Of a stretch of DNA of 64,000 bases, positions 3,702 to 9,155 are shown in pieces. Both the position numbers and the translations under genes were made by a program. The DNA is taken from positions 248,001-312,000 of the forward strand of contig JBBDYQ010000002.1 in assembly GCA_040901445.1 (NCBI GenBank), read 5' to 3'. Each line of letters starts with the position of its first letter. Position 1 is the first letter of the stretch. The notes below the pieces were generated by a model that did not search any database, was not told the DNA's origin, and worked only from the letters and a program-made list of their open reading frames with translations. This stretch comes from Thermoleophilaceae bacterium. Lineage in GTDB: Bacteria > Actinomycetota > Thermoleophilia > Solirubrobacterales > Thermoleophilaceae.

Positions 3702-4772
3702 TCACGCCGCGACGCGCTGCACGTGCGCGCGCGTGACGTGCTCGGGCGACGGGCAGCCGCAGAGCGCCAGAGCGAGCTCGATCTCGTCCCGCAAGAGCTC
3801 GAGCACCCTCCGTACCCCCGGCTCGCCGCCGGCGGCCAGGCCCCACAGCACCGCCCGGCCGGCCAGCGCCGCGCGGGCACCCAGCGCCAGTGCCTTCACG
3901 ACGTCGGTGCCGCGGCGGATGCCACCGTCCACGAACACCTCGCAGCGCCCGTCCACGGCCTCCACCACCTCGGGCAGGGCCTCGATCGTGGCCGCCACCG
4001 AGTCGAGCTGCCGGCCGCCGTGGTTGGACACCACGATGCCTTCCGCACCGTGCTCGCAGGCCAGCCGCGCGTCCTCCTCCGTCAGGATGCCCTTCACCAG
4101 CAGCGGCAGCCCCGAGGACGAGGCCAGCTCCTCCACGTCGCGCCAGGAGAGCGTCTGGTCGAGCATGTTGAAGACGTCGAAGATCGAGGCGGGCGCGGCC
4201 TCCCCCAGCGCCGCTGTGAAGCTCGGCACGCCGACGTTGGCGGGGATCTGGAAGCCGGTGCGCAGGTCGCGCTCGCGACGGCCCGGGCGCGGGGTGTCCA
4301 CCGTGAGAACGAGCGCCTCGTAGCCGGCCTCGACGGCCTGATCCACCAGCGCCCGGCTGACGCCGCGGTCCCTGTAGACGTAGAGCTGGAACCAGCGCGG
4401 CGCGCCGGGCGCGGCCGCGGCCACCTCGGCCGGAGTGGCCGTGGCGATGGAGGAGACGCACATGAGCGTGCCCGCCGCCGCCGCGGCCCGCGCCGTTCCC
4501 TGCTCGCCGTCGGCGTGGCACATGCGCTGGATGGCGGTGGGCGCCACCAGCAGCGGCATCGAGACCGGCGTGCCCAGCACGGTGGTCGCCGTGGTGGTCT
4601 CGCTCACGTCCACGAGCATGCGAGGGCGGAGCTTCAGGCGCGCGAAGGCGTCCACGTTCTCGGCCAGCGTGCGCTCGTCGCCCGCGCCGCCGGCGAAGTA
4701 GCCCAGGGCGCCCGGCTCGAGGCAGTCGGCCGCCAGGCGCTCGTAGTCGCCGACGCAGAGGGGCTCGGGCAT
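3702..4772 (-). CDS. FMN-dependent alpha-hydroxy-acid oxidase
   Basis: A 356-residue TIM-barrel flavoenzyme of the glycolate/lactate oxidase family. Members oxidise 2-hydroxy acids to 2-oxo acids using FMN. The C-terminal signature SNHGGRQLD carries the catalytic His and substrate-binding Arg, and DGGIRRG and GRAVLWG belong to the FMN phosphate site. The frame is open upstream to 4898, but the family N-terminus fits ATG at 4772. No SD sequence is evident. The acceptor (oxygen or quinone) cannot be decided from sequence. The gene diverges from the epimerase-like gene starting at 4873. Confidence 0.88.
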   Translation of the reverse strand: MPEPLCVGDYERLAADCLEPGALGYFAGGAGDERTLAENVDAFARLKLRPRMLVDVSETTTATTVLGTPVSMPLLVAPTAIQRMCHADGEQGTARAAAAAGTLMCVSSIATATPAEVAAAAPGAPRWFQLYVYRDRGVSRALVDQAVEAGYEALVLTVDTPRPGRRERDLRTGFQIPANVGVPSFTAALGEAAPASIFDVFNMLDQTLSWRDVEELASSSGLPLLVKGILTEEDARLACEHGAEGIVVSNHGGRQLDSVAATIEALPEVVEAVDGRCEVFVDGGIRRGTDVVKALALGARAALAGRAVLWGLAAGGEPGVRRVLELLRDEIELALALCGCPSPEHVTRAHVQRVAA

Positions 4773-4872
4773 GACGGCCGCGAGCCTAATCGAGCAGGCG
4801 GCGAGCCGGTGAGCCGGCCGCGACGGCGGCCGATCCGCCATCGTTGGGGTGGTGACGCCCCGGGCCCGCGAC

Positions 4873-5790
4873 ATGACCGAGCTCGTGACCGGCGCCACCG
4901 GCTACGTCGGTGGGCGCCTGGTGGAGCGCCTGCTGGGCGAGGGACGTCGCGTGCGTGGGCTCGCACGCGATCCCTCGCGCCTCGCGGCCCGCGACGGGCT
5001 GGAGCCCGCGCGCGGAGACCTGCTGAGCGGCGAGGGGCTGGCCGAGGCCCTCGAGGGCTGTGCCACCGCCTACTACCTCGTGCACTCGATGCAGGCCGGG
5101 CTCAACGGCGACTTCGCGGGCCGCGACCGCGCCGCCGCGCGCAACTTCGGTGAAGCCGCGCGCGCCGCCGGCGTGGAGCGGATCGTGTATCTCGGCGGGC
5201 TCCTGCCGGCGGGCGGCCCGCACTCGGTGCACCTGGCCTCGCGGCTGGAGGTCGAGGAGATCCTGCTCGACGCCGTGCCCGGCTCCACCGCGCTGCGCGC
5301 CTCGATCGTGATCGGCGCGGGGTCGTCTTCGTTCCGCGTGCTCGTCCGGCTGGTGGAGCGCCTGCGCTTCCTTCCGTTCCCCGCCTGGCACGAGAACCGC
5401 ACCCAGCCGATCGACGAGCGCGACGCCATCGAGTACCTAGCGCGCACAGCGCGGGTGCCGGAGGCGGCCGGCGAGTCCCTGGACATCGCGGGCCCCGACG
5501 TGGTCTCCTACGGCGCCATGATCGAGCGGATCGCCGACAGCCTGGGCGTGGCGCGCACCCCGGTGCGCCTGCGGGCGCGCCAGACCCCGGCCGCCAGCGC
5601 CGTCGTGGCCGCCGTCACGGGACAGCCGCTCGAGCTCGTGCGCCCGCTGATGGAGAGCCTGGAGCACGACCTGCTCCCGCGCGACGAGCGCGCCCGCGAC
5701 CTGTACGGCATGCGGCCGCGGCCATTCGACCGCGCAGTCGAGCGCGCCCTGCGCGAATGGGAACAGGTCGAGGAGCTCGCCGCCCGATGA
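4873..5790 (+). CDS. NAD(P)-binding epimerase/NmrA-like protein
   Basis: A 305-residue atypical short-chain dehydrogenase. The dinucleotide loop TGATGYVGG lies at the extreme N-terminus, as usual for the NmrA/epimerase branch. The family often acts as a nucleoside-sugar or quinone-related oxidoreductase, or as a redox-sensing protein, and nothing here fixes the substrate. I chose ATG at 4873, which puts the Rossmann strand at residue 2; an in-frame GTG at 4849 is an alternative. Its stop overlaps the start of the SRPBCC gene (ATGA), so the two are probably translationally coupled. Confidence 0.82.
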   Translation: MTELVTGATGYVGGRLVERLLGEGRRVRGLARDPSRLAARDGLEPARGDLLSGEGLAEALEGCATAYYLVHSMQAGLNGDFAGRDRAAARNFGEAARAAGVERIVYLGGLLPAGGPHSVHLASRLEVEEILLDAVPGSTALRASIVIGAGSSSFRVLVRLVERLRFLPFPAWHENRTQPIDERDAIEYLARTARVPEAAGESLDIAGPDVVSYGAMIERIADSLGVARTPVRLRARQTPAASAVVAAVTGQPLELVRPLMESLEHDLLPRDERARDLYGMRPRPFDRAVERALREWEQVEELAAR

Positions 5791-6227
5791 AGGTGGAGCG
5801 CGACATCGAGATCGACGCCGCGCCCGAGCGGGTGTACGAGGTGCTGATGGACCCGCGGCGCCTGGAGGATTGGGTGACCATCCACGCGGAGCTGAAGGCC
5901 GCGCCCCCGGGCGAGCTGTCGCAGGGCTCGGAGCTCAGCCAGTGCCTCAAGCTCGCCGGTCGCAAGTTCACCGTCCACTGGGAGGTGGTGGAGGACGACT
6001 GCCCCCGCCGCGTGGTCTGGGAGGGCCGCGGGCCGGTGGGCTCGAAGGCGCGCGTGGTGTACGAGCTCGAGCCCGGCGGCAACGGCAAGACGCGCTTCAC
6101 CTACGCCAACGAGTTCTCACTCCCCGGGGGCGCTCTGGGCAAGCTCGGGGGGCGCGCGGTGGCGCCCACCTCGCGGCGCGAGAGCGAGCGCTCGCTCGCG
6201 AAGCTCAAGAAGCTGCTGGAGCTCTAG
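5787..6227 (+). CDS. SRPBCC (START-like) family protein
   Basis: A 146-residue protein with the START/Bet v1-like fold pattern. It opens with the family's typical first strand (VERDIEIDAAPERVYEVLMD), then shows alternating strands and a C-terminal amphipathic helix ending KLKKLLEL. Proteins of this fold bind hydrophobic ligands or act as polyketide cyclases/aromatases; the ligand is unknown. It begins inside the stop codon of the upstream epimerase-like gene, so the pair probably forms a two-gene operon acting on the same metabolite. Transcription likely ends at the hairpin at 6245-6289. Confidence 0.85.
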   Translation: MKVERDIEIDAAPERVYEVLMDPRRLEDWVTIHAELKAAPPGELSQGSELSQCLKLAGRKFTVHWEVVEDDCPRRVVWEGRGPVGSKARVVYELEPGGNGKTRFTYANEFSLPGGALGKLGGRAVAPTSRRESERSLAKLKKLLEL

Positions 6228-6244
6228 AGCCCCCGAAGCGCGTC

Positions 6245-6289
6245 GAACGTCCCGCGCACCCCCGTTTGAAGGGGGGTTCCGGGACGTTC
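6245..6289. terminator. Long hairpin between convergent genes
   Basis: Perfect 10-base arms GAACGTCCCG (6245-6254) and CGGGACGTTC (6280-6289) enclose a second hairpin formed by ACCCCC and GGGGGGT around a GTTTGA loop. It lies exactly between the convergent ends at 6227 and 6294, so a bidirectional terminator is likely. No U-tract follows on either strand. Confidence 0.7.
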
Positions 6290-6293
6290 ATCG

Positions 6294-6692
6294 TCACAGG
6301 AGCTCGGTTATGCCCCGCGCGCCTATGCGGGCGAGGGTGGGCACGAAGTAACCGGCCTCGCGGACGCAGGCCAGGCACTCGAGCGCCGCTCCCCGGTCGA
6401 GCACGACGGCGTCCACGACCGGGCCCACTCCGTCGCCCGCCGCCCCGATCACGCGGCCCCGCGGGAAGAGCGTGTCGTGCAGCACGGCGCCGCACGTCTC
6501 GGCGTCACCGGTCACCACCACCACCGCCGCGGGCGCGCTCTGGGCGATCTCGGCAGAGGCGTGGCCGTCCGTCACCACGACCACGTGGGAGCCGCCCAGC
6601 TCGTGCACGCTCTCCACCACATCGGCGTAGTCACGTTCGGCAATCATCCGTGCAGCCTCATGTGCACCGATTACAGTTACCCTTCTACGCAT
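6294..6692 (-). CDS. Miniature malate/lactate-dehydrogenase-like pseudoenzyme
   Basis: A 132-residue protein that aligns by eye along the length of an LDH-like malate dehydrogenase but is less than half its size. The first strand (MRRRVTVIGA), the FPRxRVIGxAG segment and the closing GITELL peptide are recognisable. The NAD loop GAGxVG is replaced by GAHEAA. The substrate-binding Arg loop, the Asn of the NNP/TNP loop and the catalytic His of the GGHGD loop are all absent. It therefore cannot be a normal dehydrogenase. ATG at 6692 follows GAAAGTGA, a weak SD. It diverges from a winged-helix gene 29 bases away. Known family: LDH/MDH. Inference: a decayed or repurposed paralogue. Confidence 0.7.
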   Translation of the reverse strand: MRRRVTVIGAHEAARMIAERDYADVVESVHELGGSHVVVVTDGHASAEIAQSAPAAVVVVTGDAETCGAVLHDTLFPRGRVIGAAGDGVGPVVDAVVLDRGAALECLACVREAGYFVPTLARIGARGITELL

Positions 6693-6721
6693 AGTTCACT
6701 TTCAACTGTTCAGGAGTGCAC

Positions 6722-7081
6722 ATGGCGAACTTCCTCGCCGAGAAGCGCGCGGAGATCGACAGCCGGCTGAAGGAGCTTCGGCCACTGTATGAGGAGTATC
6801 TGATGTTGGAGCGCGCAAAGGAAGCGCTTGCCGGCGTGGACGGCGCCCCGCGCGCCCGCCGCGGAGGCGGCGGAAAAGGTGGCGGCCGGCGCCGGCGCGG
6901 TCGCCGGGGCGGCACCCAGGACGCGGTTCTCGCCCATCTGCGCCAGCACCCCGGCGCCTCGGTGCGCGAGATCGCCGACGCCCTCGGCATGAAGCACCCC
7001 AACTACCTCTACCGGGTGCTGCCGAGCCTGCAGGAGCAGGGCGCGGTCAAGAAGCAGGGCAAGGGCTGGGCCGCCGCCTGA
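6722..7081 (+). CDS. Winged-helix protein with Gly/Arg linker
   Basis: A 119-residue three-part protein. Residues 1-40 form a charged, probably coiled-coil helix (EKRAEIDSRLKELRPLYEEY). Residues 45-65 form a Gly/Arg-rich flexible linker. Residues 65-119 look like a winged helix-turn-helix, with ASVREIADALGM as the recognition region. This layout suits a small regulator or a nucleoid-associated DNA-binding protein. ATG at 6722 has a good SD (AGGAG, about five bases upstream). It is divergent from the miniature MDH gene, with both starts within 30 bases, so it may regulate that gene. Its target is not known. Confidence 0.75.
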   Translation: MANFLAEKRAEIDSRLKELRPLYEEYLMLERAKEALAGVDGAPRARRGGGGKGGGRRRRGRRGGTQDAVLAHLRQHPGASVREIADALGMKHPNYLYRVLPSLQEQGAVKKQGKGWAAA

Positions 7082-7086
7082 CGCAC

Positions 7087-9155
<2,069 letters not shown>

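What the first reader, a model, noticed from the sequence alone, without database searches (positions are those of the whole stretch)
6294..6692. A 132-residue malate-dehydrogenase-like protein with every active-site motif replaced
Seen: the protein opens with MRRRVTVIGA, keeps an FPRGRVIGAAG segment and ends with GITELL, all in the order found in LDH-like malate dehydrogenases. The glycine loop reads GAHEAA, the substrate Arg loop and the Asn loop are gone, and the catalytic GGHGD region reads LDRGAA. Known: those motifs carry NAD binding, substrate binding and catalysis in the family. Inference: this is a shrunken paralogue kept for a non-enzymatic role, such as a regulator or partner of the true Mdh encoded about 400 bases away, or of the divergent winged-helix protein.
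Basis: partly seen in the sequence, partly recalled or inferred. Interest (0 to 1): 0.75.

Follow-up and report, generated by a model that had tools for sequence, protein, structure and literature searches.

The report
Shrunken dead malate dehydrogenase, still kept
A bacterium carries a 132-residue remnant of an old malate dehydrogenase that has lost its whole active site but still reads as a folded protein, and related bacteria keep similar remnants under strong selection, which suggests the old enzyme had a second, non-enzymatic job.

Summary
The ORF is real (minus strand, 6692-6294, 132 aa) and derives from an LDH-like malate dehydrogenase (MDH). It is not a paralogue of the neighbouring Mdh. 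It descends from an MDH that other genera still encode at this locus, divergent from the same winged-helix gene. Twenty of 20 genomes with that MDH intact lack the second MDH (mdh2, PRK05442 type); 12 of 13 with a degenerate copy have it. All 13 degenerate copies lack both substrate arginines and the Asn. In two genera where related copies can be compared, they are under strong purifying selection (omega 0.02-0.09). AlphaFold2 folds the 132 residues as an MDH core (pLDDT 92; Z 19.5 over 132 of 132 residues). Best reading: a pseudoenzyme left after enzyme replacement and kept for a non-catalytic role, perhaps with the winged-helix protein. That role is inferred. Selection on the window's own copy is also inferred, because no close relative was found.

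The parts
6294..6692 (-). pMDH: degenerate LDH-like malate dehydrogenase, 132 aa, start ATG 6692-6690, stop 6296-6294
   Evidence: ORF; MDH homology; fold
6432..6692 (-). Residues 1-87: what is left of the Rossmann (NAD) domain; G-loop GAHEAA, substrate-Arg loop and Asn missing, FPRGRVIGAAG kept (residues 76-86)
6297..6434 (-). Residues 87-132: C-terminal beta-sheet of the MDH (profile positions 231-280), joined directly to the Rossmann part; catalytic segment about 147-230 deleted
6722..7081 (+). Divergent winged-helix protein (basic linker and C-terminal wHTH); 29 bp between its ATG and the pMDH ATG
   Evidence: divergent neighbour in 12 of 13 pMDH loci by search and in the 13th, G004, by eye at the contig end
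7087..8079 (-). mdh2: second malate dehydrogenase, PRK05442 / TIGR01759 type, taken to have replaced the old one
   Evidence: 557 bits against cut-off 271
8076..9155 (-). icd: isocitrate dehydrogenase
   Evidence: PF00180
5784..6227 (+). SRPBCC / polyketide-cyclase-like protein, convergent with pMDH
   Evidence: PF10604; same side in 10 of 13 pMDH loci
4873..5790 (+). NAD(P)-binding SDR-like protein of the conserved neighbourhood
   Evidence: PF13460
6245..6289 (.). Hairpin between the convergent SRPBCC and pMDH stops, probable two-way terminator
   Evidence: -37 kcal/mol, z -4.2 and -5.0

Best explanation
This is a pseudoenzyme, the retired LDH-like MDH of the locus. A second MDH (mdh2, PRK05442 type) stands between the winged-helix gene and icd and is taken to have replaced it. 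The old gene then lost catalysis. The order suggested by the copies is: single residues (the catalytic His to Tyr in G011), then the substrate-Arg loop and the Asn, and in the shortest copies the whole catalytic segment. What stays is a compact folded core (Rossmann sheet plus the terminal beta-sheet) with no NAD loop and no active site. Shown: the descent, the losses, the exclusion pattern between intact old MDH and mdh2, and purifying selection on post-loss copies in two genera. Inferred: that the window's own copy is also under selection, and that the function is binding rather than catalysis. Most likely (about 0.35 within this reading) it acts through the winged-helix protein encoded divergently 29 bp away, for example by modulating its DNA binding, a role the active MDH would already have had. 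Confidence: about 0.85 that a retained pseudoenzyme family exists; about 0.65 that this holds for the window copy as well. The ligand-sensor and mdh2-partner rivals below share this core and differ only in the job.
For: Homology: three collinear segments, E=1.4e-10; family profile to solved MDHs E=9.1e-41. Fold: pLDDT 92.1, pTM 0.88; Z 19.5, rmsd 1.4, 132 of 132 residues on 4ply_C; Foldseek best E 4.6e-7, an LDH. With truncated relatives alone as alignment: pLDDT 77.7, pTM 0.74, Z 16.8, rmsd 1.9-2.0, 132 of 132. Synteny with the intact MDH of sister genera. Exclusion: 20 of 20 intact-MDH genomes lack mdh2; 12 of 13 degenerate-MDH genomes have it. Active site: both loop Arg and Asn kept in 0 of 13 copies, against 17 of 17 intact MDHs checked. 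One clade for the 13, support 99/96. Selection after the loss: omega 0.076, 0.047, 0.022 (G102, G107, G106) and 0.090 (G204-G209), each LRT p<1e-20; all nine thirds of three pairs at or below 0.12; 60 neutral simulations give median 1.03, lowest 0.56. Window copy: of six frames only its own has positive codon log-odds (0.18; shuffles mean -0.55, sd 0.095). It keeps the same ancestral residues as its relatives (23 of 32 against 15 of 46, Fisher p 0.00065).
Against: No same-genus relative of the window's genome turned up, so omega could not be measured on its own branch. G000-G004 gives omega 0.48 (p 0.013), and G000-G145 has saturated dS. Copies are patchy: a tree of 61 mdh2 rows needs 8 changes of presence (G011 counted as present), so the gene is often lost and cannot be essential. 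An open frame of 132 codons is only mild evidence at 71% GC (about 0.07 by chance). The divergent winged-helix pairing exists with the intact enzyme too, and the winged-helix gene is present without pMDH in 36 of 39 further mdh2 loci. Branches in the MDH tree are long and the tool warned of joins between long branches. No expression, binding or knockout data were available.
Confidence: 0.68

Rival explanations
1. A slowly eroding pseudogene: after mdh2 took over, the window's copy is on its way out and its open frame is a leftover.
For: Patchy presence and many outright losses; slightly lower GC3 (0.84) than the neighbours (0.88-0.98); long terminal branch of 1.45.
Against: Strong purifying selection on equally dead copies in two other genera; five or six internal gaps all in frame; coding-like codon usage in this frame alone; retained residues match those of relatives; confident compact fold.
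Confidence: 0.18
2. A neofunctionalised small Rossmann protein that binds a different ligand or nucleotide and works as a sensor or a new enzyme, unrelated to the old MDH's partners. (Shares the pseudoenzyme core of the best explanation.)
For: Fold kept while the MDH sites are lost; divergence between copies is high (27-50% identity between genera).
Against: No new invariant polar cluster appears; the invariant residues of the 13 copies (M1, V60, P77, R78, G124, G127) are also invariant in the alignment with intact MDHs; only 4 of 13 copies keep the second and 5 of 13 the third Gly of the NAD loop.
Confidence: 0.2
3. The DNA, not the protein, is kept: the 5' end of the old gene holds promoter or operator sequence for the divergent winged-helix gene.
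For: Only 29 bp lie between the start codons; an AT-richer stretch with TACAGT inside the first MDH codons is seen in the window, in G004 and in 7 of the 8 intact loci printed (the eighth reads TACGGT).
Against: Selection acts on all thirds of the gene at the codon level; G203, G204 and G209 have over 100 bp between the genes yet keep the protein; 36 of 39 further mdh2 loci keep the winged-helix gene without pMDH; no sigma-70-like promoter found in 6200-7100.
Confidence: 0.08
4. A subunit-like partner or inhibitor of the active mdh2 enzyme (hetero-oligomer). (Shares the pseudoenzyme core of the best explanation.)
For: mdh2 present in 12 of 13 pMDH genomes, and within 4 kb in the 11 loci where it could be seen.
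Against: mdh2 is another MDH subfamily; the excised segment carries most of the known dimer contacts of this fold (recalled general knowledge of LDH/MDH, not tested); in G100 mdh2 lies 3.5 kb away while the winged-helix gene stays adjacent.
Confidence: 0.12

Closest known systems
LDH-like malate dehydrogenases (PF00056 + PF02866; PRK06223/NF004863)
   Same: Descent, order of segments and fold
   Different: No G-loop, no substrate Arg loop, no Asn, no Asp/His pair, no catalytic segment; 132 instead of about 310 residues
Plastid NAD-MDH of Arabidopsis, moonlighting in a non-enzymatic role with the FtsH12-FtsHi complex (Schreier et al. 2018, seen only as cited in passages of PMC8564385)
   Same: An MDH protein needed for something other than catalysis; a non-functional variant rescues
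   Different: There the protein is a full enzyme with a second role; here the active site is gone and the protein is shrunken; other organism and partners
Human UEVLD/UEV3 LDH-like domain (2i6t, 3dl2; passages of PMC12513931)
   Same: LDH/MDH fold in a protein not known to me for the enzyme's reaction (recalled)
   Different: Full-length LDH domain fused to a dead E2 domain in man; unrelated lineage

Membership tests
LDH/MDH superfamily by descent | Significant, collinear profile similarity | tested here: met
   E=1.4e-10 in three collinear segments against a profile of 8 relatives, 7 intact and G011; family profile E=9.1e-41 against solved MDH. P0002 alone misses Pfam; 5 of the 13 copies match Ldh_1_N and 5 of 13 Ldh_1_C
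LDH/MDH superfamily by descent | LDH/MDH fold | tested here: met
   Predicted model, Z 19.5, rmsd 1.4, 132 of 132 residues; with truncated relatives only, Z 16.8
Active LDH-like malate dehydrogenase | GxGxxG NAD loop | tested here: not met
   GAHEAA; first Gly only
Active LDH-like malate dehydrogenase | Two substrate-binding Arg in the mobile loop | tested here: not met
   Loop deleted; 0 of 13 copies keep either Arg, 17 of 17 intact MDHs checked have both
Active LDH-like malate dehydrogenase | Catalytic Asp/His pair and third Arg | tested here: not met
   Segment about 147-230 deleted
Pseudoenzyme | Homologous to an enzyme family with catalytic residues lost | tested here: met
Pseudoenzyme | Maintained by selection after loss of catalysis | tested here: met
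   For relatives in two genera; for the window copy only indirect
Pseudoenzyme | No enzyme activity; a non-catalytic function shown | not testable with these tools
   needs protein and mutants
Neutral pseudogene | Frameshifts or stops | tested here: not met
   Open frame in the window and in 13 of 13 degenerate copies; the search may favour intact frames
Neutral pseudogene | dN/dS near 1 | tested here: inconclusive
   0.02-0.09 in relatives; the window copy has no close relative, and its pair with G004 gives 0.48

The most novel reading that the evidence does not exclude
Replacement of one malate dehydrogenase by another freed the old enzyme from catalysis and unmasked a hidden second job: its folded, active-site-free core still regulates, or is regulated with, the divergently encoded winged-helix protein. 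The series from an otherwise intact His-to-Tyr enzyme (G011) through full-length dead copies to 131-132-residue cores maps which part of an MDH the moonlighting function needs.
Probability: 0.3. Interest if true: 0.78.

Novelty: new variant of a known kind. Interest (0 to 1): 0.58.

Why it matters
Moonlighting by central-metabolism enzymes is hard to separate from catalysis. Here nature appears to have done the separation: in two families of one bacterial order (probably Solirubrobacterales, from the names of two matching MAGs) an MDH seems to have lost its reaction to a replacement enzyme, yet where it can be measured it keeps evolving under strong constraint, in some copies with about half of the protein gone. 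That gives a ready set of catalysis-free variants to find what else an MDH does. It also shows that automatic annotation can miss such remnants, since plain Pfam and PDB searches with this protein find no MDH.

Tried and rejected
Single-sequence searches (Pfam, NCBIfam, PDB) gave no MDH match. The weak NCBIfam hits (SseF, StyD and others, E about 4e-4, 20 bits or less against cut-offs of hundreds) were rejected as compositional; no test was made beyond the cut-off.

Chance ORF: rejected.

Convergent, repeated excision of the catalytic segment: looked likely from the tree, but holding the 8 truncated copies as one clade is not rejected (AU p 0.187), so it is left open. The two f1 copies as a clade are not rejected either (p 0.234). 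The three g31 copies are rejected as a clade (p 0.039), but long branches are in play, so I do not lean on it.

Comparisons dropped: SRPBCC and wHTH for G204-G209 (wrong or tiny pairings: 30% identity, 20 codons), G104-G102 and G000-G145 (dS saturated). G000-G004 (0.48) is reported as against.

Class-wide search (399 genomes drawn from a larger group, match list cut): most listed matches outside the order span the profile at full-gene length. Some are partial, and at least G379 and G409 are in two pieces on one contig, which could be broken genes or assembly errors. None of these sequences was read, so a degenerate copy outside the order is not excluded.

In one search further matches were set aside as LDH/MDH-family proteins not at this locus. 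I read those of G148 (C256), G160, G153, G022, G221, G223 and G200 (C301). Not read: G158 (C15), G014 (C10), G115, G117 (C30), G105 (C110), G145 (C102), G148 (C7), G107 (C3:239754), G009 (C161, C35) and G089 (C21). Of the 20 genomes called intact (480 bits or more), 17 were checked by residue; G012, G036 and G045 were not.

Papers (search listings with starts of abstracts): MDH+pseudoenzyme (7 listed), Thermoleophilia+MDH, UEVLD, MDH+moonlighting+enzymatically inactive, FtsH12 (6 of 21 listed), pseudoenzymes+Rossmann. None of the listed titles and abstract starts describes this. Passages were read of two papers. Only an open-access library was searched.

Full report
OBSERVATION. The ORF lies on the minus strand, 6692 to 6294, and gives the quoted 132-residue protein. 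Its upstream neighbour is the divergent winged-helix gene (ATG at 6722), 29 bp from its own ATG. The window order is SDR(+), SRPBCC(+), pMDH(-), winged helix(+), mdh2(-), icd(-), M50 protease(+). mdh2 is a PRK05442-type MDH (557 bits against a cut-off of 271). The own genome holds no intact LDH-like MDH that NF004863 can find: nothing is over its cut-off, and the best match is mdh2 itself.

HOMOLOGY. P0002 alone finds no MDH in Pfam, NCBIfam or the PDB. A profile of eight LDH-like MDHs from related genomes (seven intact and the His-to-Tyr copy of G011) hits it at E=1.4e-10 in three collinear segments: positions 2-31, 102-146 and 231-280. About 80 residues carrying the catalytic residues are deleted, together with a stretch after the second strand, the substrate-Arg loop and the last helix. 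The profile of all 13 degenerate copies hits solved MDHs at E=9.1e-41; taken one by one, 5 of 13 match Ldh_1_N and 5 of 13 Ldh_1_C in Pfam.

FOLD. AlphaFold2 with the 13-row alignment gives pLDDT 92.1 and pTM 0.88. Against solved structures all 132 residues superpose on MDH/LDH (Z 19.5, rmsd 1.4, 4ply_C residues 3-292). As a control against templating by full-length rows, the eight truncated copies alone give pLDDT 77.7 and pTM 0.74 with nearly the same elements, and Z 16.8, 132 of 132 residues. In both lists the 50 rows shown are LDH, MDH or LDH-domain chains; these are re-alignments of Foldseek's own best matches.

WHERE IT COMES FROM. In the window's GTDB family (f1; 31 genomes) a winged-helix homologue is found in 29 of 31, though some hits (for instance L052, L061) are not at this locus. 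In 13 of the loci fetched by that search it stands divergent from a full-length LDH-like MDH. A profile search of the whole order (232 genomes) gave 20 genomes with an LDH-like MDH of 480 bits or more (17 of them checked by residue and intact), 13 with a degenerate one at the locus, and G011. The LDH-like MDH of G011 is intact at 11 of the 12 checked sites and has Tyr for the catalytic His. It lies at a contig edge: 5' to it is the reversed start of a winged-helix gene (read by eye), 3' are SRPBCC and SDR; another contig of the genome begins in the winged-helix gene with mdh2 and icd behind it. A search for mdh2 in the same 232 genomes found it in 194, among them 12 of the 13 with a degenerate copy and G011, and in none of the 20. 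The five of family f4 are read from their absence in the list of positives. The 13th degenerate-copy genome, G004, is 89% complete and its contig ends inside the winged-helix gene, so mdh2 may be missing there only from the assembly.

THE FAMILY. The 13 degenerate copies (window, G004, G043, G203, G099, G145, G104, G106, G204, G107, G209, G102, G100) have 131-286 residues. They form one clade with 99/96 support, sister to the G011 enzyme, though branches are long and the tool warned of it. None of 13 keeps either substrate Arg or the Asn; 2 of 13 keep the catalytic His and 2 of 13 the Asp partner; 17 of 17 intact MDHs keep all. The shortest, the window and G100, are about 43% of the full length. 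A search of 399 genomes of the class listed mostly full-length matches outside the order, with some partial ones that were not read. The divergent winged-helix gene is next to the copy in 12 of 13 loci by search and in the 13th, G004, by eye at the contig end. SRPBCC and SDR lie on the other side in 10 of 13; in G203, G204 and G100 other genes stand there (in G204 an SRPBCC-like gene lies beyond the winged-helix gene). So the copy stays with the winged-helix gene even where the other flank has changed.

LOSS. Forty further mdh2 regions were fetched; one was G100 again. In the other 39 no MDH-like gene other than mdh2 was found nearby (weak profile hits at E 0.4-0.7 were ignored), while the winged-helix gene was seen in 36 of 39; several contigs end too early to see the whole locus. 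On a tree of 61 mdh2 rows presence of a copy needs 8 changes. The gene is therefore dispensable in many lineages.

SELECTION. Copies of one genus that all lack the active site were compared with a codon model. Omega was 0.076 (G102-G107), 0.047 (G102-G106), 0.022 (G106-G107) and 0.090 (G204-G209), each with LRT p below 1e-20. For G102 against G107 and G106, neighbouring SDR and SRPBCC genes gave 0.018-0.087, the winged-helix gene 0.11 and 0.15 (61 codons), and mdh2 0.037 and 0.032. The estimate is at or below 0.12 in each third of the gene for three pairs, and 60 neutral simulations modelled on G102-G107 gave median 1.03 and minimum 0.56. dS is high (1.6-8.6), so exact values are soft, but rejection of omega=1 is clear. 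Since all members compared lack the active site, this selection follows its loss. For the window copy no close relative was found in the collections searched. Indirect support: of six frames its own alone has positive codon log-odds; it keeps the ancestral residues that relatives keep (23 of 32) far more than those they lose (15 of 46), p=0.00065; and its internal gaps relative to intact MDHs are all in frame. Against: G000-G004 omega 0.48; an open frame of this length has about 7% chance at this composition; its GC3 (0.84) is a little lower than that of its neighbours (0.88-0.98).

MECHANISM. Shown: descent, loss of the catalytic features, mutual exclusion of the intact old MDH and mdh2, selection in relatives. 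Inferred: that mdh2 replaced it, and that the remaining core serves as a binding module. The strongest lead is the divergent winged-helix protein, because that pairing is the one constant of the locus. The lead is weak in that the pairing also exists with the intact enzyme and the winged-helix gene survives without the remnant elsewhere. A known parallel is the plastid NAD-MDH of Arabidopsis, whose non-enzymatic role is described in passages of PMC8564385. None of the papers listed by the six searches describes this family, judged by titles and starts of abstracts.

VERDICT. It is a new variant of a known kind (pseudoenzymes): an MDH reduced to its fold, most likely after enzyme replacement. 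The main gap is function.

Noticed in passing
L004:153-1094 (G011): Full-length LDH-like MDH with all 12 checked active-site residues except the catalytic His, which is Tyr (GGYGD), in a genome that also has mdh2: a likely first step of the series.
   Followed up: partly
window 6245-6289: Strong hairpin between two convergent genes (about -37 kcal/mol on either strand, z -4.2 and -5.0), probably a two-way terminator without a T run.
   Followed up: partly
window 5784-6227: SRPBCC protein scores 96.6 bits against NCBIfam 'type II toxin-antitoxin system Rv0910 family toxin', just under the cut-off of 100; it is a conserved neighbour of an SDR gene and I doubt a toxin role.
   Followed up: no
window 6640-6721 and the loci printed: AT-richer stretch inside the first MDH codons (TACAGT) in the window, in G004 and in 7 of 8 intact MDH loci printed; could be part of the promoter of the divergent winged-helix gene lying inside the MDH coding sequence.
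   Followed up: partly
G203 and G204 (L064, L071): Two genomes given the same genus code carry a full-length and a truncated degenerate MDH; their mdh2 genes are sisters but their degenerate MDHs are not: transfer or long-branch error.
   Followed up: partly
G379:C159 and G409:C286: LDH-like MDH matches in two pieces on one contig in another family of the class; broken genes or assembly errors, sequences not read.
   Followed up: no
window 3702-4841: FMN-dependent alpha-hydroxy acid dehydrogenase family protein (PF01070, E=3.8e-131) close to the MDH locus.
   Followed up: no
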